A DNA stretch of 63,627 nt from a virus: the IMG/VR virus record IMGVR_UViG_3300021341_000078, positions 1 to 63,627 of that record; one strand, written 5' to 3'. The notes under the pieces were generated by a model. That model was not told the DNA's origin. It saw nothing but the letters and a program-made list of their open reading frames with translations, and ran no database searches. Positions 4,052 through 63,627 of this stretch are shown one piece after another; positions within the stretch are counted from its first letter, which is position 1; each line of letters opens with the position of its first letter. The position numbers were made by a program, and so were the translations under genes.

Positions 4052-4061
4052 ATAGAGTCGG

Positions 4062-4611: not shown

Positions 4612-4761
4612 ATTACTGTGTTTATCGCTTCTTGTCTCTTGTCTTATATCAAATGTGACAAGTTCTTATGACAATAAATGACAATTTCGACCGCGAACAT
4701 AAAACAAAAATAGCACTCAAACAATTCCCGTGCTAATATTTTAATCTTTTTCTGAGACACT
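4612..4761. other. Probable left boundary zone of the element
   Basis: 150 bases between tRNA-Ala and the first phage-like gene. It contains TGTGACAAGTTCTTATGACA-type short repeats (tgacaa/tgacaat) but no gene. The left attachment site is likely here or nearby; it cannot be fixed without the right end. Confidence 0.35.
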
Positions 4762-6786: not shown

Positions 6787-6791
6787 AAACT

Positions 6792-8549
6792 ATGGATTAT
6801 AATTTCCCTTTCAAACCACAGGCTATAATATCTAAGGAAGAGATACAAGCGCTGTTTAAAGATGAAGAAGAGGATAGTGTTGTGTTAGGGTTTACTTATG
6901 ATATCGACTTCGATGTTCTCTGTAAGTTTTATAATCTTTGGTGCAACCGTGTGAAACGTCTAATAGACCTTGATATATTACAACACAAAAAACGCACCAA
7001 TCGTTCGGCTGTGTTGTTGAATTATAGAGGTTTTACTTTCGATGAGTTCCAAGATCTATATAATCCTCATGTTACGTTCCCCACAATATACCCTTTCTTT
7101 ATACAATCTGGTATAGATTCAGAGAAACAAAGGCAAAGAATACTTTATAAATACCCAGCAGACAATGACCAAGAAAACTACTTGACGGCTATCAAAGACA
7201 GTAAGTCTTATCAAGTCATGAATTTTTTTTTGCGTAAACAGCCAAACTTCCCTATCAAAGTACCCATAGAAGCTAAAACAATGCACGAACTAGTATTAGC
7301 TGGTACTGGTTCTGGTAAGTCTGTTCTACTCGCATCAGAAGTATACAACGACTCCTACAAACTACCTACATGGTCACAAGTAATTATAGATCCACACGGT
7401 TCTTTTGCTAGACTAGTTTTTGAGTCTAAGTTACACAAGCATGATGAACGTGTGATGTTTTTCGATATAAGGATGCTACTAGAAGGATGGCGCTGGGGAA
7501 TCAACGCATTAGACATAAGGAAAGGGAACATTCTAGAGAAGAACAACGTGATTGACCAGTTAGCTTCTGCCTTTGCTGACGTTCTAAGTAAGGAGGGTGG
7601 TGAGATGAGACAGAACGTCAATACGGTGATGAAGAAGTGTCTAGAGTTCCTTATAGAGAGCAGAAGTGATGGCAAAGACTACACGCTGCAAACACTGCTA
7701 GATCTTGTGTGTTATGAAGAATACATTCTAAAAGAAGCACAAGCCTACGATAAATTCTTTGAAAAGGATTTCACTCAAACGGAATCAGGAACAGTTAAAG
7801 CGGTAAGAAGGAGATTGCGCGCAATCATAGACGATAAGGTTTTAAACATGATACTAGGTGGACAGAGTACCTTTGACTTGGAAAAAGCTATAAACAGCAA
7901 TAAGATACTCATATTCGATCTAAGTGCGGTAGGAGAGGAATCACAACAAATTATTGGTAAGTTCCTTGTTGCAATGGTGAAAGGTTACGTTAGGAGAAGA
8001 AGAAAAGGAATAGATGATCTACACACACTGCTCAAGATAGATGAGTTCCAAAACTTCATTACTGGTAGTCTTTCTTACATGCTGGAACAGCTTAGAGGGT
8101 ACGGCTTACACTGTTCTTTAGCCTGTCAAAGTATAGCACAACTAGGAGCATACCTACAAACAGTAATTGATAACACTGCTATAAAGATAGTGAAGGCTAA
8201 GTACGTTAAGAACATAATGTCAATCACGAACGTGCCAGAGAAGTATATCTGGAGAGGTAAAAGAGGGGACGACTCTACACAAGCAGACGGTCTTCTAAAA
8301 CTTGCAAAGCGTGAGTTCCTATTAGATGTTAGACAACGGCTACATGTTCAGTCATTCCACTCACCAGGGTTCCTTGTTACTAGTAAGAAGTATAGACTAA
8401 GTGAGGAGGAAATAGAAACGTCTATGAATAAACAGTTAGTGAACTTCTACCATAGAATAGATCGAGACGAGATGGGGGAAACAGAGTTCAAAGACCCAGA
8501 TCCAGACCCAGATGTAGACTTAGAAATGTTCGATGTTCCAGAGGACTAA
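6792..8549 (+). CDS. HerA/VirD4 (TraG/TraD)-like DNA-translocating ATPase
   Basis: 585 residues. After a 160-residue N-terminal domain the P-loop is ELVLAGTGSGKSVLL (about residue 175). The Walker B-like LLKIDEFQNF follows near residue 415 and a conserved CQSIAQL near residue 450, as in type IV coupling proteins and conjugative ATPases. The C-terminus is strongly acidic with repeated Asp-Pro. No hydrophobic anchor is present; the neighbouring membrane coiled-coil protein may supply one. It would move double-stranded DNA at the expense of ATP, in plasmid-like transfer, partition or segregation. It has roughly 28 glycines, none encoded by UGA, so it is readable in both codes. Downstream gene follows in the same direction. 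Confidence 0.82.
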   Translation: MDYNFPFKPQAIISKEEIQALFKDEEEDSVVLGFTYDIDFDVLCKFYNLWCNRVKRLIDLDILQHKKRTNRSAVLLNYRGFTFDEFQDLYNPHVTFPTIYPFFIQSGIDSEKQRQRILYKYPADNDQENYLTAIKDSKSYQVMNFFLRKQPNFPIKVPIEAKTMHELVLAGTGSGKSVLLASEVYNDSYKLPTWSQVIIDPHGSFARLVFESKLHKHDERVMFFDIRMLLEGWRWGINALDIRKGNILEKNNVIDQLASAFADVLSKEGGEMRQNVNTVMKKCLEFLIESRSDGKDYTLQTLLDLVCYEEYILKEAQAYDKFFEKDFTQTESGTVKAVRRRLRAIIDDKVLNMILGGQSTFDLEKAINSNKILIFDLSAVGEESQQIIGKFLVAMVKGYVRRRRKGIDDLHTLLKIDEFQNFITGSLSYMLEQLRGYGLHCSLACQSIAQLGAYLQTVIDNTAIKIVKAKYVKNIMSITNVPEKYIWRGKRGDDSTQADGLLKLAKREFLLDVRQRLHVQSFHSPGFLVTSKKYRLSEEEIETSMNKQLVNFYHRIDRDEMGETEFKDPDPDPDVDLEMFDVPED

Positions 8550-8654
8550 AAAAACAGCTGGTGTGTGACAGCTGCTTTCCCTTTACTTGTGGTGTGTAAT
8601 GATAGTAATAACGTAATTAGAGAAATTATCTTACACCTACTTATTACACAACAA

Positions 8655-9455
8655 ATGTCTAAAAGCAACAAAAAATATCTCAATGTGCTAAAGAACCTAG
8701 CCATCTATAAGTTCTTAACTCTAGAACAGATGGTGCGTTTGGGTGTGGATAACCATAAGACAAACATATCAACTGAGACAGCAACAATGATTAGGGATGG
8801 CCACGCCAATAAGATCTCAAAAAGCGACACCTCTCCAGCAGTTTACTATCTAACAAGAAAGGGTGCTACACGAGCAGAACACATCTTTGATATTACTCCT
8901 AGATACCCTAAAAGGAAAATGGATAAGATGGTAGACGACATGCCTCACAGACTATCAATTGTTGATCTACACATAGAGATATCTAGGTTCAACGTAATAC
9001 AACACTGGAGAGAGTTCGACTACGTAGGTGTGCAACGACAAAAGAACCTAGAGAAAGCAAGCAAGATAAATCTAGGACGAACATCACTAGTACCAGACCT
9101 AATCTTCAAACTCAACACAGACCAAGGACAAAGACTATACCTCGCAGAGGTGGAAAGAACAGAGGGTAAAACGGCAGACAAGTACTATGAAGACAAAGTA
9201 CACAAGTACATCACTTTGCTCAGTAACCAAGCGGTAATAAAAAGGAAGTTCAATGTGTCTCTAATGTATACAGTACTGTTCGTTATAGACGATAGAAAAT
9301 TCATAGAAAAACTAAAGAAAAAAATACTCAAGGATAAGAACGCTGAGAAGCATAACAAAAAGAAGCTCGTAGAGAGCTTCCTATTTAAGCATTTTGATGA
9401 TGATGTTTTCACTTGGACTAACCTAGAAGGAAAGCCTAGGTTGTTGTTCTATTAG
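8655..9455 (+). CDS. Replication-relaxation-like (MobC/winged-helix) protein
   Basis: 266 residues from the ATG at 8655, preceded by the ACAACAA-type leader common in this element. The frame is open further upstream to 8565, but those codons look non-protein. It begins with a winged-helix-like segment (FLTLEQMVRLGV...YYLTRKGATRAEHIF), then HRLSIVDLHIE and VPDLIFKLN...YLAEVERTEG, the pattern of the replication-relaxation family that accompanies plasmid mobilisation ATPases. Its 3' end overlaps the convergent lysis gene by 20 bases. No in-frame UGA; TAG stop. Together with the preceding ATPase it suggests plasmid-like behaviour of the phage. Confidence 0.68.
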   Translation: MSKSNKKYLNVLKNLAIYKFLTLEQMVRLGVDNHKTNISTETATMIRDGHANKISKSDTSPAVYYLTRKGATRAEHIFDITPRYPKRKMDKMVDDMPHRLSIVDLHIEISRFNVIQHWREFDYVGVQRQKNLEKASKINLGRTSLVPDLIFKLNTDQGQRLYLAEVERTEGKTADKYYEDKVHKYITLLSNQAVIKRKFNVSLMYTVLFVIDDRKFIEKLKKKILKDKNAEKHNKKKLVESFLFKHFDDDVFTWTNLEGKPRLLFY

Positions 9456-15060: not shown

Positions 15061-16479
15061 CTACAATACTTTGTAGATAAGAACTCTCAGTTGATCTGTT
15101 GTTGAACTTGTTACTTGGATAGTATTCACACCATTTCTCACCACATCAGTTATAACCTCTGCTCCTGTAGCAACATCTACTACATTCACAATTACATCTA
15201 GTGTGTTAAGGTTGTGTGTGATAGTTTGAGCGACTGAAGCTGTAGGTGTCCAAGTCTCAGCATACCCATATCCAGCAAGCAAGTTATCAATACTTACTTT
15301 TCTGTTTGCTGTTGCAGAAGCATCGTATACAGCAACGAAGTCGTTAGTACCATCTAGTGTCGTTTCTGCTGTCAGTTCATCGATGTTAAGCGTCAATGTA
15401 ACTGTGTCAGTAGCAGCTACAGCAGTAGTAATACCTTCACCACCTGTTACTGTAAGTGTGTCTCCTAGAGTGATAGTCTCAGTACCTGTATCACCTGCAA
15501 GTGTGAACGTACCAGCAGACCATTGTGGAGCAGTTGCACCAGCATTAACTGTTAGCACTTGTCCAGCTGTACCTATAGCAAGTGTCTGCATATCTGTTCC
15601 GTCTGAGTATACAATATCTCAAGCGTTCAGGGCACCTGAATCCCAATCTATTGTAAACGTATCTCCAGCCAAAGTAACAGTTAGAAGGTCACCACCATTT
15701 ATAGTAAGAGTCTCTCCGTCTAGAATACTTCCTGTGCCTGTGTTACCAGCAGTATTTATAGAAAAAGAAGAGTTGTAAAGAGCATCTGGGTTTACTTTTC
15801 TGATAGCTCCAGCAGAAGCGTCATAGAAAGGGATGAAGTCGTTTGTTCCATCAACAGTTAGCTCGCTTGTAAGGCTATTGATGTCTAGAGTTACAGTAAC
15901 CGTATCAGTTGCGCCTGCTGCTGTTGTGATACCAACACCACCAGCAACAGTAAGTGTATCACCGCTGGTGATCGTCTCAGAACCTGTATCTCCAGCGAAG
16001 TTATAAGTAGCTAGTCCTGCTTGGCTAAACTGTGTAAACGTCAATGCTGTAGTTCCTACAGTGATAGTTCCTGAAGTAGTCAATACAAAACCACCTCCAC
16101 CGTTTGTTGTACCTTCCTCTACGAATGTGAACAATCCAGATGTTACATCTGCATCTACATCCGCGTCGATAGCTCTTGTAGGAGCACCTGTAGCGTTTAC
16201 GGTATAGATACCATTCTCACTTCCTGTTGCTTGATCCTTAATCAAGATTCTATCACCTGTAGCAAGCGTTACGCCGTCTACTGTGTCTCCGTTCTCGAAG
16301 TCAGAAGCTAGTGTTCCTGCTGCTGTCGTAGTAACTCTTACTGAATCCTTAATGTCTAAAGCTTGCTTTACCGCGTCTACATAAGCTTTTGTAGCTGCGT
16401 CTTGTGCGTTAACTGGATCTAACAAGTTAATTATCTTGTTAGAGTTCATGTCCAATTCTTGTAATACTGGTCTTGCCAT
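15061..16479 (-). CDS. Tail fibre with repeated beta modules
   Basis: 472 residues read through a single UGA at codon 287 (ALNA-G-DIVYSDGTD). The N-terminus MARPVLQELDMNSNKI...AATKAYVD is the common start of phage tail fibres. Two imperfect repeats of about 75 residues contain GDTGxETIT-GDTLTV and DGTNDFxxxYDAS. The C-terminus (ETWTPTASVAQTITHNLNT) resembles a segment of the small protein encoded upstream. One UGA in more than 45 glycines is far below the rate in early genes. Confidence 0.8.
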
Positions 16480-27396: not shown

Positions 27397-28275
27397 TTAT
27401 TGTTGCCAAGTTTTCTTCCAAACGATGTATAGACCTCCATCCCTGCAAGTGAACTCAGCTGGACTACCAGCGAAATCAGTTCTACTTCTGTTGACGTAAG
27501 TTCTAGCAAGTTCTCCTGTCAATGCTGCTTTTGAGAAATAAGCGATAGTCTGAGAATAGTTTGTCAGACCGTTACTTGAATCTACACTACCAGCCTGAGC
27601 ACAAGAAACAAACTTGTACAACCCCAAAGGAATACTTTGTTTTTCTACTCTATATCCTGTTAGTTGCTTGTCTCTAGGTGTGTAATCGTAAACGATAACT
27701 AGATCCTGAGCGATGGTAGTAACACTACCTGCAATAGCTGGAACAGTAACTACTGTTCTACCTAGTGCGTCTTGTGTTACTGTGTAATCAGCAGGAGCTA
27801 TAACACCATCCACAGAACCTGTTACAGAAGTAACAGTGATAGCAGAACCGTCTCCGTTTTGGTTACATAGAGCGATAGCAGTAGCTAGTGCCCAGTTTCC
27901 AGAAGCCACAGTTTGCGGAAATCAAGGGACAGCAGCACCAGTAACGCTAACAGTGCTAGTTCCTAGCATATTTGCTAGTACGTCTAGGTTATTTACGTCT
28001 AACCAAGTGAAGCTGATAGATGGGATGATCTTTGCTGAAAGATCAATAGTACCTACATCGCAGTTATCTACGATGATCTCTTCTTCTGAATCTAGAGTGT
28101 GTCCTTCTGAGAAATCTTGGATCTGTCCTACTGTAGAGTAAGCATATGTCTCAAGATCACATCTAAGACTTTCTAGGTTCGCAGCGGTTGGTGTAGCGAA
28201 TGTTCTGCTACTATCGAAGTTTGTTGAGTAGTACAGATCACCAGCCGTAGCCAACTTATCAAGTGTAAGTGTCAT
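27397..28275 (-). CDS. Major tail (tube) protein
   Basis: 292 residues. Beta-rich, with IPSISFTWLDVNNLDVLANML and AQDLVIVYDYTPRDKQ as in Bacteroidota siphovirus tube proteins. It sits between connector genes and the tape-measure region. The only in-frame UGA is codon 118 (VP-G-FPQ); the other glycines, about 20, are GGN. In a standard-code cell translation would stop there. Confidence 0.75.
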
Positions 28276-28298
28276 TTGTATGTGAGTACGAAATAAAA

Positions 28299-28520
28299 TT
28301 AGCAATTACAGTCTCTACCTGAGTGGCATACAATATGATCTTTGAGAACCTTGCAATCCTCACAAGAGAGTTCGTATTGTTGTCCTTGGGTGTAGAAAAC
28401 ACCTTGGTGACTTACGTTTCTCTTGAAGATCACTTTACTAGTAGAAGCTGTTTTACCAGCTTTCTTCTCTACTTTCTTCTCCTCGTTCTCTGGCATCATC
28501 TTGTTGGCTACCTCGGTCAT
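28299..28520 (-). CDS. Small Cys-rich protein
   Basis: 73 residues. ATG at 28520 is preceded by a strong Shine-Dalgarno (AAGGAGG, 9 bases upstream), which decides this start over one eight codons upstream. Lys/Glu-rich N-terminus, then a C-terminal cluster CEDCKVLKDHIVCHSGRDCNC with five cysteines and two histidines, probably a zinc site. No UGA codon, so it reads in both codes. Role unknown; it lies just upstream of the tail tube gene. Confidence 0.65.
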   Translation of the reverse strand: MTEVANKMMPENEEKKVEKKAGKTASTSKVIFKRNVSHQGVFYTQGQQYELSCEDCKVLKDHIVCHSGRDCNC

Positions 28521-30642: not shown

Positions 30643-31821
30643 TTATGCAAGAGGACAAGCCATAGAGATAGTCTTATCTAGACCTGCTTTCTCGTTTGCG
30701 ATATCGAAACCGAAGAACATAGTAACATCCCATAGGATAGCGTCACTGTATTCGTGAGTAACGATGTTCATGCTTTTACCGAAAGCGTATTGTACAGCGT
30801 TTCTGTGCATCAAGATACCTTGGATGTTTGTTGTAGAAGTTTGTGTGAACTTACCACGTGCATCCAAAGCACCAGCAGATATTACTGTACCGTCTGCTTC
30901 ACAGAAAGCTGGCATCTCTTGTGTAGAGTATGCTTCTACTCCCTCTGGAGCTAGTACGAATCCACCTCTAGTATTAGTAGCGTTACCACCGAATACGTTT
31001 TGAGTAGAGTAGTTAGAATCGAATCTTACCTTGTTAGCAAATGTGTTTGACAACAAGAATAGAAGATCGTTAGGGTTGTTCACGTAGTTTACAACTCCAG
31101 TAAACATATCCTGTACTACACCTCTTGAGTATGCAGCAGCACCGTTAGTAACACCATTAGCGATAGCGATCTTTCTGATACCGTTGTTACCAACAGTAGA
31201 AGCGTTTTCATGGTATGTTGTAGGTACAACTTGACCAGCATAGTTGATGTTAGTAGCCGTAGCATCTGTATCACCGTTGATGATGTAGCTTTCAATTGTC
31301 TTGTTAGCAGCAGCAACAATCTTTTGCTCGATTAGAGCAAGCATGTTTGTTTCTGTTACTCTAGACAATTCTTCTACTGAGATAGCGATCTGAGTAGTGA
31401 ACTTCTTCATATTGATAAGCAACTGATCTGTTCTCACAGCGTTGTTGTTGCTGATATCGATGAAGTTCTGCACACCTGTTCTCTCGTATCCAGAATCGAA
31501 GTAATCTGCTTCACCAAGAACGTTAACTCTTGCAGAATCAGCAGTATCGATCTGACCGTGATTACCTCTCAATTTAGAAAGAAGCTCAGACTGTCTGCTG
31601 ATCATAGAGTATAGTTCACTCTTGTATTCAACAGGAACTCTGATCTCAGCACCGAAGTCAGTATTAACTCAAGACATGATTTCGTTTTGTGCTTTCTGTC
31701 TAAGGTTTTTCTCCTCAGTGAAAGACTTCTCAGCAGCTTCTAGAACCTTTCCAGCGTCTTTTCCTGCTACTTTTGCAGCCTTTGTTAGGGCTGTCTTAAA
31801 ACTTTGATCTACTAGTGACAT
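30643..31821 (-). CDS. Major capsid protein, HK97 fold
   Basis: 392 residues. N-terminal delta-like helical segment of about 60 residues (LTKAAKVAGKDAGKVLEAAEKSF), then the N-arm and the HK97-type body: AISVEELSRV, ALIEQKIVAAANKTIESYII, and the C-terminal AILWDVTMFFGFDIANEKAG. Follows the protease-scaffold gene by 25 bases. The only UGA is codon 51 (MS-G-VNTDFG); about 24 other glycines are GGN. The single UGA falls early, so standard-code translation yields only a 50-residue fragment. Confidence 0.88.
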
Positions 31822-31846
31822 TTGTAGTAAATAAATAGATATAAAA

Positions 31847-33094
31847 CTATTCAGCAGCGTGTGCTGTTCTTTTGAGCGCATCACCTACTCTGTAGCCTGT
31901 AGATTCCTCTTCAACGTACAGCATACCAATCTCTTTGTAGTTGTTTACAGCCTCAGCTACTACTTCTTTGAGTTCAGCGTTTTCAGCGTCCTTCTTTTCG
32001 TTAGCTTCGACTAGTTGATTGATAGTGTCCGTAGCTTTCTGAGTCACCTCTTCTAGAGTTTCCTCTAGCTTAGCTACTTTAGAAGATAGCTCTTTGTAGT
32101 TAATCCCTTCCTCTACTGATTTTTCCTCTTCAACAGTTTCCTCTACTTCTTCAGTAGGTTCTTCTGTTTCAGATTCCTCTCAGTCTCCAGCGTCTCAGCT
32201 TTCTTGTGAGTCTTGAGAAACTTCTTCAGCTTCTTCTGGTGTGCTTTTCTCTTGTTCGTCATCAGCTTCAGCAACAATGTCTTCTTCTACATCGTCTGGC
32301 GCTACTTCTTCAGTAACCTCTTCAGATGTTTCTTCTTCTTCTTCTTCTTCTTCTTCTTCTTCTTCTTCTGTTTCCTCAACTGTTTCTTCTACGGCTACTT
32401 CTGCTGGGTCTTCTCCAGCGTCTTTCTCTTCTACTAGTTCTGGCATTTCCTTAGCTACCTCTTCAGCTACTTTCTCCAGCTCTTCAGCTTCTAGGGTGTT
32501 TACGTCAACTCATTTCTCTTTCATGTACTCCATTAGTTTCTTAACCTGCATGGTATTAGTGTGTAATTGTAAAAGGTTGTCTATAGATTTACGAACCGTG
32601 AATGGGTTGTTCGGTATATCTACCATCGATATCTCGTGAAGCTCTACAGACGTGATATGTACTCAGTCTTCTCTCTCTTCTATCCCACCTTGCTTAGGGA
32701 CGAATCCGATAGAGAATCCTACAATGAGTCCGTGTCTAAGACCGTGTATTGTTTTCTTGTGGTCTTCGATCTCTGGGTTTAGGATAACTTTAGAATGGAT
32801 ATACAGCCCTTCTCATTCTTTGACCTCTATTCTCTCAGTACGTCAGATGTTGTTCTCTTCACCTCTCTTGTGTCCTAGCTTGATTACAGGGTTCTCCATA
32901 TATCTTCTTAGGTCTACTCACTCTGGGTGTATGATATCACCGTCGAAATCTTTATCGACAGTGCTAGCAAAACCTTCAATACTGAACTCTATACTCCCAT
33001 CCTCTAGAACCTTTTCAGGTAGCTTAGAAGGGATTCTTTTAGAGTGGATAATCAAAGGGCATAACTCTTTTCTTCTGCGTTGCTTTCTGTTCAT
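31847..33094 (-). CDS. Prohead protease fused to acidic scaffold
   Basis: 415 residues. Residues 20-175 form a caudovirus prohead protease (peptidase S78/U35). IIHPEGVDLRRYMENPVIKLGHKRG carries the His, and EGLYIHSK, LIVGFSIGFVPKQGG and SVELHEISMVDIPNNP follow. The rest is a scaffold: Glu-rich with a run of 13 glutamates encoded by GAA/GAG repeats, then coiled coil TLEEVTQKATDTINQL. An in-frame ATG at 32551, codon 182, could make free scaffold. Seven or eight UGA-Gly codons, including HPE-G-V at the active-site region. Confidence 0.86.
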
Positions 33095-33173: not shown

Positions 33174-34499
33174 CTATGATTCAGGCTGTGGCTGTTGTGG
33201 TAATCTGTTAGGTATGTACTGATCTAGTATTTCATCGTTTACCTCTTCTAGTTCAAACTCTGTTCTATACTCGTTTCTGTTCTTGATGCCTCTGTCTACC
33301 TCCTGCATAGCGATCTCTCTTTCCTTAATCACGTCTCTAAACTCTGCGTTCTTACACTTGAACTCTCAATCGAACTTAGGGTCAAAGTATTTCTTGTATG
33401 CTATGGTCATAGTGTCGCTTAGTAGTTTACCGTATGTGTCGATAGTGCTGTTACCTTGTCTCACAGTCATGCTTTCGATTTCAGAAAAAGCTCCAGTTTC
33501 TTTCTGGAGTCCTACGAGTCTGGTGTCTAGCATGAATATCACCGCAAAGTCTTTGTCGTTTTCTTTTCTGATGTTGATGTAGTCCATATCTATGTTAGAT
33601 AGGTCTAGCGTTGTCACGTTCTGTACTATGTCAGAGATAAGCGGCTTGTATGAGTTGCTAGAACCACCAAACTTGTTGTTCCACATCTCAGCAAAAGCTT
33701 TTACATCCTCTGGGTTCTGGATCTTCTCTTGGTCTAGTGCTACCATAACATTAGGTACAGCGTTGTTCTTGAAGAAGTATAGCTGTCTCTTGTTCGCTTC
33801 TTGGTTAGTTAGTGCCTCGATTACTATTCTCTGTAGCTTAGAGTAACCGTACATAGGACGGAAAGGGTCTCTAAGCATAACCATGTTTACAAACTGTTTA
33901 GGCAAGAACTTCTCTATCTCGTTTTTGATAACGTAGTGATAGTGTTTGATCTCTCCGAACTTGTCGAAAAACTTCTTAACACCTCTAGTATCAAGAACCT
34001 TTACGTACCCATCTTTAGGGGCTTTGTTTAGTAGGTTAATCTGGTTAGGTATAAGACTAATCTCACCGCTACAGAAGTACTGCACAAAGAAGTCTCTAAT
34101 GAAATTATCGAAAGAAAGGTTGTCTGTCACTCATGTGCGAAAAAACAAGCTAGCTTGTTGCATAGCTGAGTTTGCTCCACTATCCTCTCTTACCTCTTTG
34201 GTCTCTGGATCTATAACACAGAACCCATCACGACCGACCATGTCTGTTATTTTATCTATGTACGCACCAGCCATCTTGTTAGTCTTGGCTATTCTGTACA
34301 TAGTGTTGCTGTCTATAGCCACCTTTCAGCAACCTTCTAGGTTAGATACTTCACGTCGTCAAAACTGCGATAGCCCAGAAACAAACTTCTCTTTTGTTGT
34401 CCTCTGTGGTACTACCTTGGGTGTTATTTCTTGAGAGATTTGACTTACAAGGGCGTCAATATTCTGCTCGTTGAAGTTTTGTATGAACTGGTTCGACAT
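33174..34499 (-). CDS. Portal protein
   Basis: 441 residues with four UGA-Gly (QFGRR, EGCGK, RTGVTD, FDGEF). Middle region FLPKQFVNMVMLRDPFRPMYGYS KLQRIVIEAL, and GGSSNSYKPLISDIVQNVTTLDL-NIDMDY, show the phage_portal pattern, including the wing/stem segment. The C-terminus is acidic and Pro/Gln-rich. First gene of the late operon. No Shine-Dalgarno is visible before the ATG. Confidence 0.85.
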
Positions 34500-34747: not shown

Positions 34748-35515
34748 ATGAATAAATTTAAGTTTTTTGTTGTAGTCTCGATTTTACTTATTGGTGTTTT
34801 ATATTATAGAATGTCTTTAGGTTCTTCTTATGCATATGAAGAGGAAACTGTGTTTACTGACTTAGAAGAAGCCTCTGAACCAGAAATAAAGTTTGACCCT
34901 CCCCAAATTTTTGCTGAACCTTATGATAAGAAAGATAACTTGAAGGATAAATTACTTAAAAAATGCAATATTTCTAGCCTAAAGAAAAAACTGCGAAAAT
35001 CCTGTGATTATAACGAAACTAGAAACCTTGCTGCAATAATTGCTTCCAAGTCTGAAGGAGAATTCAACATTGGTCAGGTATGTGATATTTGGGATTATTG
35101 TAAAGAGAAATGGGCGTATGTAGATGATCCTGCTACCTCTTTCATTTCCTCCGCATCCAATACAATCAGAATAGGGTTTAAAGGAGATTGTGATGATTTT
35201 GCGGTTGTAAATTCAGCTTTAATACTAGGTATTGGGGGAAGAGTACGGATTAATGTGGCTTATAATGATGATGGAGGTCATGCTTTTACTGAAGTAAATG
35301 TTGGGGATAGTAACATTGATGCCATACAGGCTTACATAAACTATCGATATAAAAAAAGATTAAAACAAAAAGTGAAAATTAACTACAGAGTTTCGTCCGA
35401 TGGAAACAAATGGTTGAATCTTGATTGGTTCTCTGAATATCCTGGTGGAAAGTATTTTAATTTTAATCATGGAACTTCTTATTATATATTGCAAGATTTC
35501 TGTGAAAGTTTTTAA
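34748..35515 (+). CDS. Transglutaminase-like domain protein, exported
   Basis: 255 residues. N-terminal hydrophobic segment (FFVVVSILLIGVLYYRM) acts as anchor or signal. Around residue 140 is FKGDCDDFAVVNSALIL with the catalytic-type Cys, then GGHAFTEVNV with the His: a transglutaminase-like core. Likely cysteine protease/amidase-like or cross-linking activity outside the membrane. AT-richer, with different codon choice (TTA, AAA, TTT) from the surrounding phage genes, opposite strand, no UGA, TAA stop. First gene of an inserted block; its end overlaps a downstream frame. Confidence 0.68.
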   Translation: MNKFKFFVVVSILLIGVLYYRMSLGSSYAYEEETVFTDLEEASEPEIKFDPPQIFAEPYDKKDNLKDKLLKKCNISSLKKKLRKSCDYNETRNLAAIIASKSEGEFNIGQVCDIWDYCKEKWAYVDDPATSFISSASNTIRIGFKGDCDDFAVVNSALILGIGGRVRINVAYNDDGGHAFTEVNVGDSNIDAIQAYINYRYKKRLKQKVKINYRVSSDGNKWLNLDWFSEYPGGKYFNFNHGTSYYILQDFCESF

Positions 35516-35534
35516 CTTTGAGAAAATTGAAGTT

Positions 35535-36209
35535 ATGGTATTCTACACTAGTGATGGAAAAGAAACATTTGGACCATTTTCTTTAGAAGAGTTAAAAGAA
35601 CAAGAACTTGTTAGTACTTCTCTGGTTTATAGTGAAGGAACGCAGTGGGTGAAAGCAATAGACTTACCTGAACTAGCAGATTTCTTTAAGGCCAAGGTCC
35701 CACCACCACCTCACATTCCACCTCCGCCACCTGTTCACCTAGTCAATCAAAATGTTTACCAAAGTAAGATATCTAACGATAAGCCTTTCTCTTTTGATTT
35801 TTCACAAGTGAAGGATAAGGCCTGGATAGTCGCTCTTGTAGTGTTTTTGATAATTGGCGGATTTGGGGTAAACTATTATCAAAATGTCAAAGAGACTGCA
35901 CGTTTAGAGGCGGAGGAAGTAGCAAGTAAAGAATTAAAGAAACAAGAAGAGGCAGCTAAAGCTGAAGAACAACGTATTAAGGAAGTCGAAGGAAAAATCG
36001 CAGAATCTAAGGAAAGGCTTGCGACACTTCAAGGTGATCTAGCCTATGCGCGCCGCAATCAAAGAGAGGTTGAAGAATTCGATATAACCAGAACGCCAAA
36101 GCAAGGTAGGGAGCAGAAGGCCGAAGCGAGAAGGGAAGTTAATAGAATTCAAAAACAGATCGACCAGGAGAAAAAAAGAATAGAAGATCTTGAGGCAATG
36201 CTATACTAA
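35535..36209 (+). CDS. GYF_2-domain membrane protein with coiled coil
   Basis: 224 residues from the ATG at 35535. Residues 1-60 (FYTSDGKETFGPFSLEELKE...VYSEGTQWVKAIDLPEL) are a GYF_2 domain, common in Bacteroidota membrane proteins. A proline-rich linker, one transmembrane helix (AWIVALVVFLIIGGFGVNYY) and a long charged coiled coil follow. GYF_2 normally binds proline-rich peptides. Standard code; stop TAA. Second gene of the inserted block. Confidence 0.78.
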   Translation: MVFYTSDGKETFGPFSLEELKEQELVSTSLVYSEGTQWVKAIDLPELADFFKAKVPPPPHIPPPPPVHLVNQNVYQSKISNDKPFSFDFSQVKDKAWIVALVVFLIIGGFGVNYYQNVKETARLEAEEVASKELKKQEEAAKAEEQRIKEVEGKIAESKERLATLQGDLAYARRNQREVEEFDITRTPKQGREQKAEARREVNRIQKQIDQEKKRIEDLEAMLY

Positions 36210-36294
36210 TTGGTCTATTACCGATTGACAGAGATTTGTACGGCCAGATTGACCGAAACAACTATCTTCAAATTTCAGTAAAATTAAATTGAGT

Positions 36295-36323
36295 AGAGCG
36301 TATCTAGAGTTTAGATACGCTCT
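36295..36323. terminator. Strong 12-bp hairpin between cargo genes
   Basis: AGAGCGTATCTA and TAGATACGCTCT form a perfect 12-bp stem with a five-base loop. There is no long T-run, so it may be a bidirectional transcription stop or a structured leader of the next gene. Confidence 0.5.
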
Positions 36324-36356
36324 ATTTAAATAGAGTACGTTCCGTCAGATACTATC

Positions 36357-37610
36357 ATGGGAATAAAGTCATTGATTTACCTTGTAACCGCTCTAGTAAT
36401 TAGTGTCGTAATCTTAGACATTAAAAGCGATATACACAAAAAAAGAACATATGATGAAGACTACAGTAAAGTCCTAAACATCAAGTATGGACTATTAAGC
36501 TTAGATGAGTGGAAAGACAAGGCTTATATCGTACTAAGACAAAACATTAATGAATTCAACTTCAATAATTCAGACAAGCAGACACTAAAGAGCCAGATTG
36601 AAGAACTACTATATACTCTTTTAGATGAAGTTAAGGAGGTAGTTGAGGAAAGTAGTACTTTGAATGGTGCGATTCCTAGCGAGGTGGCGAATTTTCTACG
36701 ATCGTTGGTGATCGATTTTGGAGTCATTGAGAATAATATACCTGATTTTGCCGATTCCATAATGGCAGAACTCAATGATCCTCGTAATCAAAATCAGGTA
36801 AAGAGCATAATCAATACCAAGTTGAGATCTATTCTGGAACTTGATGTGCCAAGGACTGACTTAGAGTTTAGATCATTCTATTTTGAGTTATATAACTGCA
36901 CAAGTTACTTGGAGTGTGGTGAAGAAATCAAAAACAAGTTAAAGCCTATAGAGGAAAGCATTGAATGTAAGAAGAAAATTCTATATGGATGCGCGGCTTT
37001 ATTGATTTTTATTGCCTTGTTCCCACAGAGAAAAGTAGATTTAGGAGATATTGTTCCTTTAACAATGGCAAGTATAGGTCTACTGTATGCAGGGATATAT
37101 TATCCAATGATTTCTGTTGATGCCAGGGTTAGTGAATTTGACTTTAAGTTGCTAGGAATGAATGTAGAATTTGGAGAACAAGTTATATTCTATCAATCGA
37201 AGAGTATTCTTGAAGTCGTAGGTTTGCTAATAAGTGAATCCAATATAGATAGTGTGTTTGTCGGGTTTTTAATCTTATTTTTTAGTGTCCTATTTCCGAT
37301 ATCCAAAATGTTGCTTTCCCTTGTATTTTACTTTAACCGTAAGAGCAGAGTTATATTCTATATAGTTACTAAGCTTAGTAAATGGTCTATGGCTGATGTA
37401 TTTGTGGTTGCCATCTTTATGTCGTTTATAGGCTTACGTAGTTTAGTGAAAAGCCAGGTTCTGAGTATTGAGAGCGGAAACCCATTCATTGACATTGTAG
37501 CAACCGACAACACCTCTTTAGAAATAGGTTTTGTCTGCTTCACCTTCTATTGTTTAATCAGTATTTTGATGTCTGCGAAAATTGGGAAATTACCAAAACA
37601 CTTCAGTTAG
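36357..37610 (+). CDS. PqiA-like membrane protein
   Basis: 417 residues. An N-terminal membrane segment and a soluble region of about 190 residues are followed by four hydrophobic helices. The last half has PqiA (paraquat-inducible protein A) features: YYPMISVDARVSEFDFKLLG, FLILFFSVLFPISKMLLSL and LSKWSMADVFVVAIFMSFIG. PqiA proteins belong to envelope lipid-transport systems. The soluble N-terminal domain is an extra part without known relatives to me. No UGA, TAG stop. Third gene of the inserted block. Confidence 0.78.
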   Translation: MGIKSLIYLVTALVISVVILDIKSDIHKKRTYDEDYSKVLNIKYGLLSLDEWKDKAYIVLRQNINEFNFNNSDKQTLKSQIEELLYTLLDEVKEVVEESSTLNGAIPSEVANFLRSLVIDFGVIENNIPDFADSIMAELNDPRNQNQVKSIINTKLRSILELDVPRTDLEFRSFYFELYNCTSYLECGEEIKNKLKPIEESIECKKKILYGCAALLIFIALFPQRKVDLGDIVPLTMASIGLLYAGIYYPMISVDARVSEFDFKLLGMNVEFGEQVIFYQSKSILEVVGLLISESNIDSVFVGFLILFFSVLFPISKMLLSLVFYFNRKSRVIFYIVTKLSKWSMADVFVVAIFMSFIGLRSLVKSQVLSIESGNPFIDIVATDNTSLEIGFVCFTFYCLISILMSAKIGKLPKHFS

Positions 37611-39003: not shown

Positions 39004-39101
39004 ACAAAAACTTTGTCTTGTTTTCGTCCAGATTAATAGAGTTGATTTGCTTTTAAGGTTATAATTTGGCACACTCAACGTACCAACACAAACCAAAAAC
39101 T

Positions 39102-40136
39102 ATGTTCGTACTAAATCTATTGGCTGGTATCACAGCCGTTTTGGGTGGCTACTACAGGTTTTTGAAGTTCTCTCGAATAAATGATGAGGTTGAAGAATAC
39201 AAGAAAAAGAACGGTAGAATATGGGAAAAAATAGATAACTCGAAATTCAGAGAACTACCAGCCATTGTTATTAGGTGGTATCTACGACTAAGTACGCCTT
39301 TCAAGAATATTTACGCGGAGCTTGAAAAAAGAGGCGTAAGTGGGAAAGTTCCTAAGTTCTTTTACTATGGCTTTATGATAATAGGCACAGCGTGTTTTAG
39401 TCTTTCCTTATTCGCTTTTCAAAACCACCTACTTTACTTTGTTTTCTTGCTTTTGTTCTTGGGTATCCCTGTAGTTTTTCAAAATGATCAGACCTTTAAT
39501 TTATCTGAAGGTCAGGGAATTTACGCTTTTGGTAAGTACATGACTATACTTTTCCTTAGCCTTTTGATAACATCTTCTTCGCTCATCCTTGGGGATGAAG
39601 TAACTTGGAATGATTTTAGTATTGTATCAGACTTAGAAGTAAGGACACTAGTTTTTTCGATACTTTTTAGCAATGTAATATTTGATCTTCTGACCGTATT
39701 CATAACGTACTTCATTCTTAAGAGAGCACTAAACAACCGACGATTCCTTTTCCTCTTTATATCCCTTGACATCATAATGTCAGCGTGTTTCTCTATTTAC
39801 TCCATCTATTTTGGCTTGCTAGGCACAGAGCAGAGTATAGACCTTCTGGAAGCAACACGTATGCTTATAGGTCTTTCTCCAGATGGTAGTATGTGGCAGT
39901 TTGGGTCTTACTTTTGGGCGATGCACACTACCTTCATACCGACACTAATATACTTGAGTGTGTTAATCCTGATGATTATAGCAAAGTACATAACGATACC
40001 TGTAGCTAATTTTTTCTACAGAGCAAGTGTTACTGAAGACCCATACATGATGTACGCCTTTTTCTACGTTACATTGTCTGGTATCTTCCTTTTGATAAGT
40101 TTTGTAATGGGATATTACTTAAAAAGCCCCTCGTAA
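39102..40136 (+). CDS. Polytopic membrane protein
   Basis: 344 residues from ATG at 39102, chosen over an in-frame TTG at 39066 because the leader ACCAACACAAACCAAAAACTATG resembles other starts in the element. Seven or eight hydrophobic segments, an N-terminal basic loop, no conserved motif recognised. About 20 glycines and no UGA, on the strand opposite its neighbours, TAA stop: readable in both codes. Could be superinfection exclusion or another prophage-expressed envelope function; this is inference. Confidence 0.65.
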   Translation: MFVLNLLAGITAVLGGYYRFLKFSRINDEVEEYKKKNGRIWEKIDNSKFRELPAIVIRWYLRLSTPFKNIYAELEKRGVSGKVPKFFYYGFMIIGTACFSLSLFAFQNHLLYFVFLLLFLGIPVVFQNDQTFNLSEGQGIYAFGKYMTILFLSLLITSSSLILGDEVTWNDFSIVSDLEVRTLVFSILFSNVIFDLLTVFITYFILKRALNNRRFLFLFISLDIIMSACFSIYSIYFGLLGTEQSIDLLEATRMLIGLSPDGSMWQFGSYFWAMHTTFIPTLIYLSVLILMIIAKYITIPVANFFYRASVTEDPYMMYAFFYVTLSGIFLLISFVMGYYLKSPS

Positions 40137-50847: not shown

Positions 50848-51891
50848 ATGTATACTTATAAGTTTAGAATCTACCCCAATAAAGAACAGCAAGCATTACT
50901 TGCAAATAGCTTCTGATGTTGTAGGTTTGTTTACAATAAGTGAATAGCGACTCGGCAAGAGATGTACAAAAAGTGAGAAAAGGCAAACTACTATACGCTT
51001 GCGTGACTACTAAAAGAACGGAAGCAAGAGCTGCCACGATTAAAAGTCGCATACTCGCAGTCATTGCAACAGTCCTTAAAGAATCTTGACCGTGCTTACA
51101 AAAACTTTTTTGCTAAGCGTAGCAAGTATCCACGCTTCAAGAAGAAGTTTGCAAAACAATCTTGTCACTTCCCACAACACACAAGCATAGAGGGGATGAA
51201 AATCAAGTTCCCTAAACTATGACTTGTGAGGTGTAAGCTCCATAGGAGTGTAGAGGGATGTATCAAGAATATGACTATCACACGTAATCCATCTTGAAAG
51301 TACTACGTCAGTATTTGCACTGACCATGCTCCACAAAAACCACGTGGCACTGGTAGTGTGGGCATTGATGTTGGTATTAAAGAACTTGGCTACTGTAGTG
51401 ATGGTTATGTGATAAAGAATCCAAAGTTTCTCAAGAAAGCTATGAAAAGACTAAAGAAACAGCAGAGATTCATGAGTAGAAAAAAGAAGGGAAGCAGAAA
51501 CAGGAATAAACAAAGAGTAAGAGTAGCAAGACTTTATGAGAAAGTAACCAGCCAGCGTAGGGATTACCTACACAAAGTGTCTACTAGACTACAGAAGAAC
51601 TATGAGACAGTAGTAGTTGAGGATCTAAATATCAATAATATGGTAAAGAACCATTGCCTTGCACAAGCCATTATAGATGTAAGTCGATGAATGTTCTTCA
51701 CTATGCTAGACTACAAAACGAATTTAATCAAGGTAAAGCCACACAACACATCCAAGACCTGTAGTAGGTGTGGTCATGTAAAAGAAAAGCTAAGTCTTGA
51801 AGTGAGAGCGTACACTTGCGGTGCGTGCTGACTGATAATCGATAGAGACTACAATGCTAGTCTCAACATATTAGCAAGGGCTACTACTTAG
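50848..51891 (+). CDS. tnpB: TnpB (IS200/IS605-type RNA-guided nuclease), recoded
   Basis: 347 residues, eight UGA-Gly, full length. RuvC-like triad: Asp in GIDVGIKELGY, Glu in TVVVEDLNINN, Asp in LIIDRDYNASLN. Zinc finger TCSRCGHV...YTCGACG. N-terminal bridge: SFGCCRFVYNKGIATRQ. No TnpA adjoins, so this is a TnpB-only element, mobilisable in trans or acting as a guide-RNA nuclease. Its UGA codons mean it works only where UGA is Gly. Confidence 0.93.
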
Positions 51892-52030
51892 ATTTTAGAA
51901 CTACTCGGTAGTAACTGGTAGCGTAGGTACTACGCGAACCGAGCTTAAGCTCAACGCCTGTGGAGAGTGTAGGTTACGAACTCTATGAAGCAGGAAGCCG
52001 TCGGACTTTAGTCCTTGGTAGTTCACATCT
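51892..52030 (+). ncRNA. Omega RNA / transposon right end
   Basis: The tail GAAGCAGGAAGCCGTCGGAC followed by TTTAGTCCTTGGTAGTTCAC is the standard 3' end of TnpB-associated guide RNA and the hairpin of IS605-type right ends. The preceding bases form further stems. The guide would be templated by sequence to the right of the GTTCAC end, about 52027 onward. Confidence 0.75.
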
Positions 52031-52045
52031 TAAACAGAGTTACTA

Positions 52046-52435
52046 ATGACGTTACAAGAAATATTAGACTTGTGGGTAGAGAAGGGGGCTGTGTATGAGT
52101 GAGTTTCTTTTGATCAAGCGCATTTGTTCTGAAAGCACATACTTCTATATGAAGACGTTGGACCTTTTAACGAAGAATACATCTCACTCTCTCTAAACGA
52201 TATACTCTACTGAGATTCCAACTTTTGGAAAGCGTTGTTTCCCCTTGACTGGCAGTATGAAACGCCAGAATATGATAGTAGGTACGTAGACCCTGTGTTT
52301 AGGGATTGAGGAGTGATTTATGTTCTAGATAACGTAAGTGACGCACCGAGAGTGCGAAGATGGAACTTTCTAAAAATGCAAAGCACTCTCCACAAAGATA
52401 AAGTCGCTTACCTATCTGATTTACTTTCTAAATAA
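52046..52435 (+). CDS. Hypothetical early protein
   Basis: 129 residues, Trp/Asp-rich, about five UGA-Gly. It starts 15 bases after the TnpB element, whose insertion may have separated it from upstream genes. No domain recognised. Confidence 0.62.
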
Positions 52436-54246: not shown

Positions 54247-54518
54247 AGCTGAATACACAGAAGATAAAATACTGATGTAACTTCTGTGAGGAGTGTGGGT
54301 GTAAGAAGCATCGACTACCGTTCCAGATCCACCACGTAGTCTACAGATCTGAGGCTTGACGACACAAGAACATAAACCACCCAGATAACCTATTGATAGT
54401 ATGTGCGCCTTGCCACCAGAAGATACACTCTAACAAGAAGGCGTATCAAGCAAAACGAGTAAAAAAGAGAGACTTATGGAGAGTGTTCCCAGATGTGTTA
54501 CATGACAAGTACAAGTAG
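54228..54518 (+). CDS. HNH endonuclease
   Basis: 96 residues starting ATG-UGA at 54228, overlapping RusA by 19 bases. CNFCEECG...IHHVVYRSE.GRHKNINHPDNLLIVCAPCHQKIH is an HNH zinc-nuclease. Packaging-associated or restriction-like role. Confidence 0.82.
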
Positions 54519-54543
54519 AAAGTTTTATTACCTAAACTTTTTT

Positions 54544-54972
54544 ATGAAAGAGAGGCGAGTTCCAGTCACTTGATATGAGTGAAGTTATGAAGTGAGCAAT
54601 TTATGAAGAGTTAGATCCCTAGATAGATATTCTACTTCACACCAACGCGATTCTCTAGGAAATTTCTACACTAGACGCGTTAAACAAACTTGAAGGATGC
54701 TAAAGCAACAAGTCAACAACTGAGGTTATGCAAGAGTAAGACTTATGAAAAATGGGAAGTGAAAATATACTATGGTGCATAGAATAGTATACTTCTCATT
54801 CAATAAAGTCCCTTTAGCTAAAAACAACAACATTGGTATATGTTGTATTTGCCACAAAGACGACAACAGACTTAACAATAGCATTAATAACCTTTTCTAC
54901 GGTACGTACAGAGATAATGTTAGAGACATGATGAAAAAATGAAGAGAAAACTTCTTTTGAAGAAACAATTAG
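54544..54972 (+). CDS. NUMOD4/HNH homing endonuclease
   Basis: 142 residues, about nine UGA-Gly. PVTGYEGSYEVSNLGRVRSLD is NUMOD4 (three Gly are UGA), and CCICHKDDNRLNNSINNLFYGT is the HNH core. Typical free-standing homing endonuclease. Confidence 0.85.
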
Positions 54973-61214: not shown

Positions 61215-61748
61215 CTACTGATCACCGAGATTCAAAATAGGTCTCGCTAGCTTGTAACGTATAAGCTCACCTTGTGGTTTGTCTGGACGAGAGAGGTTTT
61301 CTTCACTGAGTGGATACTTGCCTATCTCAATGACCTCTAACTCCTTGGCTTTCTGTACTGTCCCTTTGTAGATAGTAACATACTCAAGGTTCATCCTTTT
61401 TAGATACTTAGGCTTGTATCTCTTGGATTCCCCTTGGATTGTAATACCGATTTTCGCTGTTTCACCTTTGTAGAGGTAGAATGTGCCGTTTGGACAATGT
61501 AAACACTGATAGTAACCGTTTCGTCTAGCAACTAAGCGGTATGTCTCAGCGCTTTCTCTCATCCTTCTCACCTTGTCGTTGAGTTGGGCTTTTCTCTTCT
61601 CCTTTAGTTCGTACGTTCCGTCTGGATTGCGTTTTACGTAGTCATCAAATGACTCGTAAGCGAAGTAAAGTAATGCGAATAGCAGGAATAAGATTGGTAG
61701 GGTTCTACTCTTGCCTACTGGTGTAGGGCTTTCTGTTTTCTTAACCAT
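61215..61748 (-). CDS. Membrane protein with degenerate GIY-YIG-like region
   Basis: 177 residues: N-terminal transmembrane helix (LPILFLLFALLYFAYESF), charged linker, then YYQCLHCPNGTFYLYKGETAKIGIT and YVTIYKGTVQKAKELEVIEI resembling a GIY-YIG-like fold found near Bacteroidota mobile-element genes. No UGA in about 14 glycines. Part of the module with RadC and integrase. Confidence 0.6.
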   Translation of the reverse strand: MVKKTESPTPVGKSRTLPILFLLFALLYFAYESFDDYVKRNPDGTYELKEKRKAQLNDKVRRMRESAETYRLVARRNGYYQCLHCPNGTFYLYKGETAKIGITIQGESKRYKPKYLKRMNLEYVTIYKGTVQKAKELEVIEIGKYPLSEENLSRPDKPQGELIRYKLARPILNLGDQ

Positions 61749-61771
61749 ACTGCCTTGAATTTTGGCGGTTT

Positions 61772-61811
61772 ACGAATATGATTTATTCGTAAGTACTGCC
61801 CTCAAGGTAGT
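61772..61811. promoter_or_regulatory. Inverted repeats between divergent genes
   Basis: ACGAATA-tgatt-TATTCGT (61772-61790) and TACTGCC...GGTAGT (61794-61811) lie in the 125-base gap between the membrane gene and RadC. Operator-like spacing; candidate site of a regulator of the lysogeny module. Confidence 0.5.
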
Positions 61812-61873
61812 GCGTGACTATTGGAGAGGGGCGTTTCTGCTCCTCTCTTTCACAATAAACATATAACAAAAAA

Positions 61874-62335
61874 ATGGAAAAGAAAAGAGTACCTAAACGT
61901 GTTGCAGAAATCCAAGTAACCTACTCAGCTAAAATTAAAAAAGAAGAACGGCATCAAGTCAAATGTAGCCTAGACATCTACCAGATAGTCATGTCTGAGA
62001 TCTATGGTGATGATATTGAGTACGTAGAGACGTTCTACGTTATAATGCTTAATAGATCTAGTGAGATATTGGGTTATAAACAAGTTAGTAAAGGAGGATC
62101 ATCGGGCACGGTTGTCGATGCAAAGGTGGTATTCGCGCCAGCGTTAAAGTGTCACGCGAGTAGTATACTCTTAGTACACAATCACCCTTCATCTAGCCTA
62201 TACCCTTCACAACCTGACAAGAACCTAACAAAGAAACTAGTAGACGCTGGGAAGCTACTTGACGTACTTGTCTTAGACCATTTGATCGTAACTATGGAAG
62301 GCTATTACTCCTTCGCAGATGAGGGTCTTATTTAG
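61874..62335 (+). CDS. RadC-family JAB-domain protein
   Basis: 153 residues. Metal site VHNHPSSSLYPSQPD (H-x-H...D), plus LDVLVLDHLIVTMEGYYSFA. RadC/JAB proteins of this type accompany integrases of Bacteroidota mobile elements; catalytic role not settled. No UGA; TAG stop. Confidence 0.85.
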   Translation: MEKKRVPKRVAEIQVTYSAKIKKEERHQVKCSLDIYQIVMSEIYGDDIEYVETFYVIMLNRSSEILGYKQVSKGGSSGTVVDAKVVFAPALKCHASSILLVHNHPSSSLYPSQPDKNLTKKLVDAGKLLDVLVLDHLIVTMEGYYSFADEGLI

Positions 62336-62345
62336 CAATTATCTA

Positions 62346-62369
62346 CTGACGGACTACCGTCAGTTTTTT
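62346..62369 (+). terminator. Rho-independent terminator
   Basis: CTGACGG-ACTA-CCGTCAG followed by six T, between the convergent RadC and integrase genes. Confidence 0.85.
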
Positions 62370-62370
62370 A

Positions 62371-63627
62371 TTATAGCATATCTATCGCGTTCTGTAGTTT
62401 CTCTCTATCTCTCACTATACCCAAATACTTATTGGTAGTCTTTATTGAAGCATGATCCATAAGAGTTTTAACCGTCATTATGTCTACACCTTTTGATAGC
62501 GCTAGGGTAGGGGCTGTGTAACGTCCACTGTAGAAGCTAAAGTATCTACCATCGCTGAAACCTATCTTTTTGGAGACCCTCTTATAGCACTTATAGGAAT
62601 TGTCTCTCTCTCTTTTTGCCCTTCTCTCTGTCTCTACTGGATCTTTATCGAAACCATTTAGTATAGGTAGTATGTACTTACCTTTTGAGTCTATCTTTTT
62701 CAGTATCTCTAGTGCAGCCTCCTTCACAGGTTTCCCCAGCTTGTTCTCGAACCCAGTCTTTGATCTACTATACTTCCAAATGTCGTTTGTGATATCATCC
62801 CAACGCAACCGAGCTAGGTCTATAAGGTTCACCCCAAAAAAGAAATATGAGAGAACCCAGTAGGACATGTACTTCCATTCAGTGTCTGAGAAGGTGTTGT
62901 TGTAGTAATAGAAAACAACGCTTTCTTTTTCTTCCTCAGTCAGATCTCTAATTCTTTTCTTATTGGTTTTTTTCTTCCCTTTTCTTTTGCGCTCGTTTAT
63001 ATCATACCCGTTAGGGTTGTAGACTGTCTTAAAAGGGTTGTGCTTGGCTTCTATTATTCCCTCCTTGAGTGAGAAGGATATCAGTGTTTTTGTCCACTTT
63101 AGATAGTTGAAGCCGTTCATATCTCTCTCGTCGAAAGACTTTGTAAGTTTATTTATAGAGGACAGATTGAAGTCGCGTATTCGTTTATTGTCCAAGTCTG
63201 CTTTCTCAAATACAGGTATGAGTGCTAGATAGTTTTTTGCAGAAGATACATCACCAGACTCCACCTTGCGGTTGTATATGTCCATAGCAAACTCTCCTAA
63301 GCGCTTATCTTCTACCTGCTCAGTAGATCTATGCTTAGCTAACAGGCTAGAGAACTCTTTATAATCAAAGCTATCTATGAAATTATTCTGGTAGACGTGG
63401 TAGCAATCATCAAGGTACTGTCTGATATAACCATTCTTTTTCTGTCGACCTCTTTCGTGTACATTATAGCATCTTCTTTCAGAGTCCCAATTCTCTTTTA
63501 AGCAGGAATAGCCCTTGATCCTTTTCTTAGTGTTGTTACCTCCATACCTGATCTGTATGCAGACAGGGTGTGCACCATTTCTTAAAGTAACATGTTTGTC
63601 AAGGTAAGTGACAAAAGTAACCTTCAT
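62371..63627 (-). CDS. Tyrosine recombinase (integrase), Bacteroidota type
   Basis: 418 residues, complete, its ATG being the last three bases of the window. An Arm-binding N-terminus (TFVTYLDKHVTLRNGAHPVCI) and a SAM-like core-binding domain are followed by the catalytic domain: LIDLARLRWDDI, KYSRSKTGFENK, FYSGRYTAPTLALSKG and MDHASIKTTNKYLG with the nucleophile Tyr. The first catalytic Arg region is FFGVNLIDL, as in many Bacteroidota integrases. It drives integration and excision. About 20 glycines, none UGA. The attachment site should lie just outside the window. Confidence 0.9.
   Translation of the reverse strand: MKVTFVTYLDKHVTLRNGAHPVCIQIRYGGNNTKKRIKGYSCLKENWDSERRCYNVHERGRQKKNGYIRQYLDDCYHVYQNNFIDSFDYKEFSSLLAKHRSTEQVEDKRLGEFAMDIYNRKVESGDVSSAKNYLALIPVFEKADLDNKRIRDFNLSSINKLTKSFDERDMNGFNYLKWTKTLISFSLKEGIIEAKHNPFKTVYNPNGYDINERKRKGKKKTNKKRIRDLTEEEKESVVFYYYNNTFSDTEWKYMSYWVLSYFFFGVNLIDLARLRWDDITNDIWKYSRSKTGFENKLGKPVKEAALEILKKIDSKGKYILPILNGFDKDPVETERRAKRERDNSYKCYKRVSKKIGFSDGRYFSFYSGRYTAPTLALSKGVDIMTVKTLMDHASIKTTNKYLGIVRDREKLQNAIDML

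What the first reader, a model, noticed from the sequence alone, without database searches (positions are those of the whole stretch)
50848..52030. TnpB and guide RNA recoded to UGA=Gly
All of TnpB, with intact RuvC triad and zinc finger, depends on eight UGA codons, and its guide-RNA end is intact. An insertion sequence adapted to code 25 implies long residence in UGA=Gly replicons, and the nuclease can act only when UGA is recoded.
Basis: partly seen in the sequence, partly recalled or inferred. Interest (0 to 1): 0.72.

Follow-up and report, generated by a model that had tools for sequence, protein, structure and literature searches.

The report
Recoded TnpB nuclease in an Absconditabacteria-type phage
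A phage that uses the unusual genetic code of Absconditabacteria carries an RNA-guided DNA-cutting enzyme (TnpB) rewritten in that code, and a sister copy sits in an otherwise unrelated phage with the same code, so this enzyme lineage has probably long lived only in replicons of that code.

Summary
Its omega-RNA scaffold ends at 52026.

One correction: the code is not plain table 25. CGA, and CGG in two other phage genes, is read as Trp as well, so this is the Absconditabacteria code (UGA=Gly, CGA/CGG=Trp; PMC8629427). Both CGA codons of TnpB fall on columns that are Trp in 80/96 and 89/96 standard-code relatives.

The nearest relative found (57% identity) is a second recoded TnpB, in an otherwise unrelated UGA=Gly phage. 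The two are sisters (SH-aLRT 95, also with recoded sites masked) and share a ~5-residue deletion seen in none of 96 other copies, none of which has an in-frame UGA. So the lineage has probably lived long in recoded replicons.

Limits: no TnpA and no left end were found, so "insertion sequence" is unproven. The terminal omega-RNA stem is imperfect. Chromosomal Absconditabacteria copies could not be sampled. Nuclease activity is inferred.

Passing oddity: the contig also carries UGA-free genes whose CGA reads as Arg.

The parts
50848..51891 (+). tnpB, 347 aa, read with UGA=Gly and CGA=Trp (CGG probably Trp); 8 UGA, 2 CGA, 2 CGG, no UGG
   Evidence: fold
51367..51369 (+). RuvC-I Asp174 (equivalent of ISDra2 D191)
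   Evidence: alignment to 8bf8/8h1j; invariant
51619..51621 (+). RuvC-II Glu258 (equivalent of ISDra2 E278)
   Evidence: invariant
51847..51849 (+). RuvC-III Asp334 (equivalent of ISDra2 D361)
   Evidence: invariant
51760..51828 (+). zinc-ribbon Cys codons 305, 308, 324, 327
51894..52026 (+). omega-RNA (reRNA) scaffold, right-end side; 3' boundary at GTAGTTCAC|
   Evidence: aligned with L021 with 5 compensated pairs; covariance model hit 51954-52026; sub-threshold Rfam RAGATH-18 hit 51957-51996
52002..52018 (+). 3' part of the terminal omega-RNA hairpin (stem imperfect in this copy)
52027..52046 (+). inferred guide segment (16-20 nt after the scaffold); no other match in the window with up to 3 mismatches
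   Evidence: similarity to L021 stops here; position inferred from ISDra2 (PMC8612924)

Best explanation
This is a phage-borne, RNA-guided TnpB nuclease gene with its 3' omega-RNA. It belongs to a small TnpB lineage fully adapted to the Absconditabacteria genetic code (UGA=Gly, CGA/CGG=Trp). Shown by sequence: the reading frame, both reassignments in this phage's genes, the catalytic residues, the scaffold, and a recoded sister in a second, otherwise unrelated phage. Inferred: in an Absconditabacteria host the gene is translated in full, TnpB trims its own mRNA into omega-RNA, and the complex cuts DNA matching the flank after the right end next to a TAM, i.e. the empty site, which keeps the element in place. 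In a standard-code cell translation would stop after 22 residues and CGA would give Arg at two conserved Trp sites, so the gene could spread only among replicons that share the code.
For: UGA at mostly Gly columns. CGA64 and CGA280 at Trp columns, 80/96 and 89/96. CGG/CGA at conserved Trp columns of the terminase (CGG57 5/6, CGG175 6/6, CGA277 6/6) and of the methylase (CGG285 2/2). UGA is 8/19 Gly codons in TnpB against 43% in the phage genes, p=1. Recoded sister in L021; its 46-kb contig is UGA-coded throughout and shares only TnpB and an HNH/NUMOD4 family. Sisters at SH-aLRT 95, also with recoded residues masked. Shared ~5-residue deletion absent from 96 others. No in-frame UGA in any of the 96. 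pN 0.31 against pS 0.79. Omega-RNA. Fold.
Against: Only two recoded copies were found, and SH-aLRT 95 from a quick search is moderate. Chromosomal Absconditabacteria/Gracilibacteria copies were not sampled. The terminal omega-RNA stem is imperfect and the fold z-score is only -1.8. No TnpA and no left end. CGG within TnpB itself is not decided (CGG36 lies at an Arg/Lys column, CGG58 at a Leu column). No expression data.
Confidence: 0.82

Rival explanations
1. Domesticated phage gene: TnpB and its omega-RNA have lost mobility and serve the phage, for example as a homing-type or competitor-cutting nuclease, much like the HNH/NUMOD4 genes these phages also share.
For: No TnpA. Starts 8 nt after the upstream ORF, with no left-end hairpin, whereas L021 has a strong hairpin upstream. 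Next ORF starts right at the guide. HNH family shared between the two phages.
Against: The active site is intact and the scaffold is conserved, as in ordinary mobile copies. TnpB-only elements can be moved by TnpA in trans (general knowledge). No target outside its own flank was seen.
Confidence: 0.3
2. Independent recent captures: each phage took a standard-code TnpB and ameliorated it, so there is no long-lived recoded lineage.
For: GGA to TGA is one mutation, so recoding can be quick. UGA at shared Gly columns is not above chance (4 of 14, Fisher p 0.28).
Against: The two recoded copies are sisters at 57% while the best standard-code copies reach 44-49%. They share a deletion absent from 96 others, and both use CGA at both shared Trp sites with no UGG.
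Confidence: 0.12
3. Decayed pseudogene: a standard-code TnpB that picked up stop codons.
For: Slightly worn terminal RNA stem.
Against: 0 TAA/TAG against 8 UGA in frame; UGA mostly on Gly columns; catalytic residues kept; pN well below pS; neighbouring genes read the same way.
Confidence: 0.02
4. Code-switching phage in a standard-code (Bacteroidota-like) host: integrase and moron genes are standard, lytic genes and TnpB recoded, so the nuclease would appear only after a code switch.
For: UGA-free genes whose Pfam scores fall if CGA/CGG is read as Trp. RadC most like Bacteroidota copies, terminase most like Bacteroidota phages.
Against: No suppressor tRNA-Gly(UCA) or tRNA-Trp(UCG) in the window. 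Replication genes are recoded too. CGA/CGG=Trp together with UGA=Gly is known only from Absconditabacteria. Assembly chimerism of the ends is possible.
Confidence: 0.12

Closest known systems
ISDra2 TnpB (PDB 8h1j/8bf8; PMC8612924)
   Same: Same fold (TM 0.84), same catalytic residues and zinc ribbon, 3' omega-RNA ending at the element's right end with the guide beyond
   Different: About 33% identity; 347 against 408 aa; coding depends on UGA=Gly and CGA=Trp; no TnpA or left end found
L021 TnpB, IMGVR_UViG_3300050015_000237
   Same: 57% identity, same code including CGA=Trp, same ~5-residue deletion, same omega-RNA layout
   Different: Different phage; perfect terminal RNA stem; strong hairpin upstream of tnpB; different guide
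Code-25 phages of Absconditabacteria/Gracilibacteria (Liu et al. 2023, PMC10746230)
   Same: UGA-dense phage genes, integrase, terminase, portal
   Different: The main text of that paper mentions neither TnpB/transposases nor CGA/CGG
Absconditabacteria genetic code (Shulgina and Eddy 2021, PMC8629427)
   Same: UGA=Gly and CGA/CGG=Trp
   Different: Described there for cell genomes; here seen in phage genes

Membership tests
TnpB (OrfB_IS605 / Cas12f-like RNA-guided nuclease) | RuvC D-E-D triad, HTH and zinc-ribbon domains, TnpB fold | tested here: met
TnpB (OrfB_IS605 / Cas12f-like RNA-guided nuclease) | Omega-RNA at the 3' side of the gene | tested here: met
   terminal stem imperfect
TnpB (OrfB_IS605 / Cas12f-like RNA-guided nuclease) | RNA-guided DNA cleavage | not testable with these tools
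   needs biochemistry
IS200/IS605 element | TnpA (Y1 transposase) in the element | tested here: not met
   no PF01797 match in either contig; TnpB-only elements exist, so mobility in trans stays possible
IS200/IS605 element | Recognisable left end, TAM and empty site | tested here: inconclusive
   right end defined at 52026; no left end; no related phage for an empty site
Genetic code 25 (UGA=Gly only) | UGA read as Gly | tested here: met
Genetic code 25 (UGA=Gly only) | CGA/CGG remain Arg | tested here: not met
   CGA64 and CGA280 in TnpB, CGG57, CGG175 and CGA277 in terminase, CGG285 in methylase lie at Trp columns
Absconditabacteria code | UGA=Gly plus CGA and CGG=Trp | tested here: met
   Pfam gains for terminase, DUF6291 and TNB
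Absconditabacteria code | tRNA-Gly(UCA) and tRNA-Trp(UCG/CCG) supplied by the host | not testable with these tools
   host unknown; none in the window
Code-switching phage (standard-code host) | Phage-encoded suppressor tRNA or release factor | tested here: not met
   only tRNA-Ala found; no release factor among the proteins scanned, but not every ORF was scanned

The most novel reading that the evidence does not exclude
The genetic code acts as a barrier that has isolated a TnpB lineage: its coding rests on a stop-to-sense and a sense-to-sense reassignment, so it can be made only in Absconditabacteria-code cells. In this phage it sits beside standard-code lysogeny and moron genes, so one virus would carry two gene sets readable in two kinds of host, with the nuclease confined to one of them.
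Probability: 0.15. Interest if true: 0.8.

Novelty: new variant of a known kind. Interest (0 to 1): 0.5.

Why it matters
It gives a concrete case of an RNA-guided transposon nuclease lineage that appears confined by the genetic code, and shows that phages use the sense-codon change CGA/CGG=Trp as well as UGA=Gly. That makes the idea that recoding blocks exchange of mobile elements directly testable, and warns that annotating such phages with table 25 puts Arg at conserved Trp positions, including one at the start of the TnpB zinc-ribbon/RuvC-III domain.

Tried and rejected
UGA=Trp: rejected by score losses and columns. CGT=Trp as a control lowers OrfB_IS605 by 4.4 bits. Looking for relatives of the phage by portal, capsid and the DUF87 gene in IMG/VR gave nothing, and near-identity search against phage records gave nothing. 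The N-terminal UGA pattern gave 22 contigs; an HMM screen kept only L021. Looking for chromosomal Absconditabacteria copies: the single genome scan gave only cyanobacterial copies. That scan back-translates Gly as GGN and so is blind to UGA; relatives cannot be drawn for a virus record. Integration repeats: no long direct repeat joins the two ends. Shared UGA sites as evidence of a recoded ancestor: not significant, so not used. Other guide matches in the window: none. Rfam at gathering threshold gives only a tRNA.

Full report
What is there. The ORF at 50848-51891(+) is a TnpB of 347 aa that needs eight UGA codons to be sense; by table 11 the longest piece is 110 aa. The frame has no TAA or TAG against 24 in each other frame. 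Three TnpB domains score well above their cut-offs. D174, E258 and D334 align with ISDra2 D191, E278 and D361 (D191 as catalytic residue, PMC8612924), and the four zinc-ribbon cysteines are kept. A model folded with 38 relatives has pLDDT 92.6 and matches ISDra2 TnpB at TM 0.84.

The code. In 96 standard-code relatives five of the eight UGA columns are most often Gly (23, 125, 150, 281, 328); Gly is second at 43, third at 32 and not among the top three at 53; Trp is not among the top three anywhere. Reading UGA as Trp costs 14.5 and 6.3 bits on two domains. The protein has no UGG; its two CGA codons fall on columns that are Trp in 80/96 and 89/96 relatives. The same holds elsewhere in the phage: terminase CGG57, CGG175 and CGA277 are Trp in 5/6, 6/6 and 6/6 relatives, methylase CGG285 in 2/2. 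Terminase, DUF6291 and the TNB domain gain 4-6 bits when CGA/CGG is Trp; methylase, portal and C39 peptidase change by -0.4 to -1.4. This is the Absconditabacteria code of Shulgina and Eddy (PMC8629427), so the phage's host is most likely an Absconditabacterium (inference). CGG inside TnpB itself is undecided.

Phage. The contig is an IMG/VR virus record with recoded portal, terminase, prohead protease, tail, lysis, DnaB and methylase genes. UGA makes up 43% of Gly codons in the phage genes and 42% in TnpB. Code-25 phages of these bacteria are known (PMC10746230).

Relatives. Patterns that require UGA in the CxxC-G...DRDxNA motif, or CGA at the Trp before RuvC-III, each found a single IMG/VR contig, L021; a third pattern was screened by HMM and kept only the same contig. 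Its TnpB is 57% identical and also has UGA at Gly and CGA at Trp. That 46-kb contig is UGA-coded throughout and shares with the window only TnpB and an HNH/NUMOD4 family. The nearest standard-code copies reach 44-49% and none of 96 has in-frame UGA. The two recoded copies are sisters at SH-aLRT 95, also with all recoded residues masked. The stretch between residues 287 and 305 is 19-20 residues in these two and 24-25 in the other 96, a shared deletion that does not depend on how codons are read. Protein change is constrained (pN 0.31, pS 0.79).

Guide RNA. Similarity to L021 runs from the tnpB stop to GTAGTTCAC at 52026 and then ends; five of 29 predicted pairs have both sides changed and kept. 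A model from 15 standard-code relatives, without either recoded copy, hits the window at 41.6 bits and L021 at 53.8. The window's terminal stem has an internal mismatch and deletion, and its fold z-score is only -1.8 against -4.7 for L021. The guide would be 52027-52046, at the start codon of the next ORF.

Mobility. No TnpA was found in either contig. tnpB starts 8 nt after an upstream ORF and no left end was recognised, whereas L021 has a strong hairpin there. So this may be an immobile or trans-mobilised copy; 'insertion sequence' is not demonstrated.

How it likely works. As for other TnpBs, the protein would trim its own mRNA to omega-RNA (PMC10278001) and cut DNA that matches the flank beside a TAM (PMC8612924). 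The only special step is translation: a standard-code cell would stop after 22 residues. All of this paragraph is inference.

Limits. Cellular Absconditabacteria copies could not be sampled, only two recoded copies are known, the tree support is moderate, and the host is inferred from the code alone. No paper in the held library combines TnpB with Gracilibacteria; the single hit for TnpB with 'alternative genetic code' has that phrase only in its reference list. Unheld papers may exist.

Noticed in passing
2287-9455, 34748-37610, 39066-40136, 61215-63627: UGA-free genes on the same contig (amine oxidase, DUF87/VirD4-like, Replic_Relax, transglutaminase, PqiA, RadC, Arm-DNA-bind_5 integrase): 184 Gly codons in ten ORFs without one UGA. 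Amine oxidase, transglutaminase, relaxase and integrase domains score worse if CGA/CGG is Trp, DUF87 and PqiA unchanged. Two of the blocks lie inside the recoded head module on the opposite strand, so end chimerism alone does not explain them.
   Followed up: partly
61874-63627: RadC is most like Bacteroidota plasmid copies and the integrase has a Bacteroidota-type arm domain; the terminase is most like Bacteroidota phages. The link between this recoded phage and Bacteroidota is unexplained.
   Followed up: partly
9436-9455: A standard-code relaxase ORF and a recoded holin/peptidase ORF converge and overlap by 20 nt at the border between the two code regimes.
   Followed up: no
15061-16479, 27397-28305, 30643-31884: Long phage structural genes with only one UGA each despite many Gly codons, possibly highly expressed genes that avoid UGA.
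   Followed up: no
54493-54972; G001 5455-5853, 31630-32157, 33655-34227: HNH/NUMOD4 endonuclease family is the only other gene shared by the two recoded phages.
   Followed up: partly
50848-51891; L021:977-2011: Neither recoded TnpB uses UGG for Trp, although UGG is common in the phage genes (93 UGG, 59 CGA, 25 CGG).
   Followed up: no
4537-4611: A tRNA-Ala(GGC) gene in the left standard-code part; no tRNA for UGA or CGA/CGG in the window.
   Followed up: no
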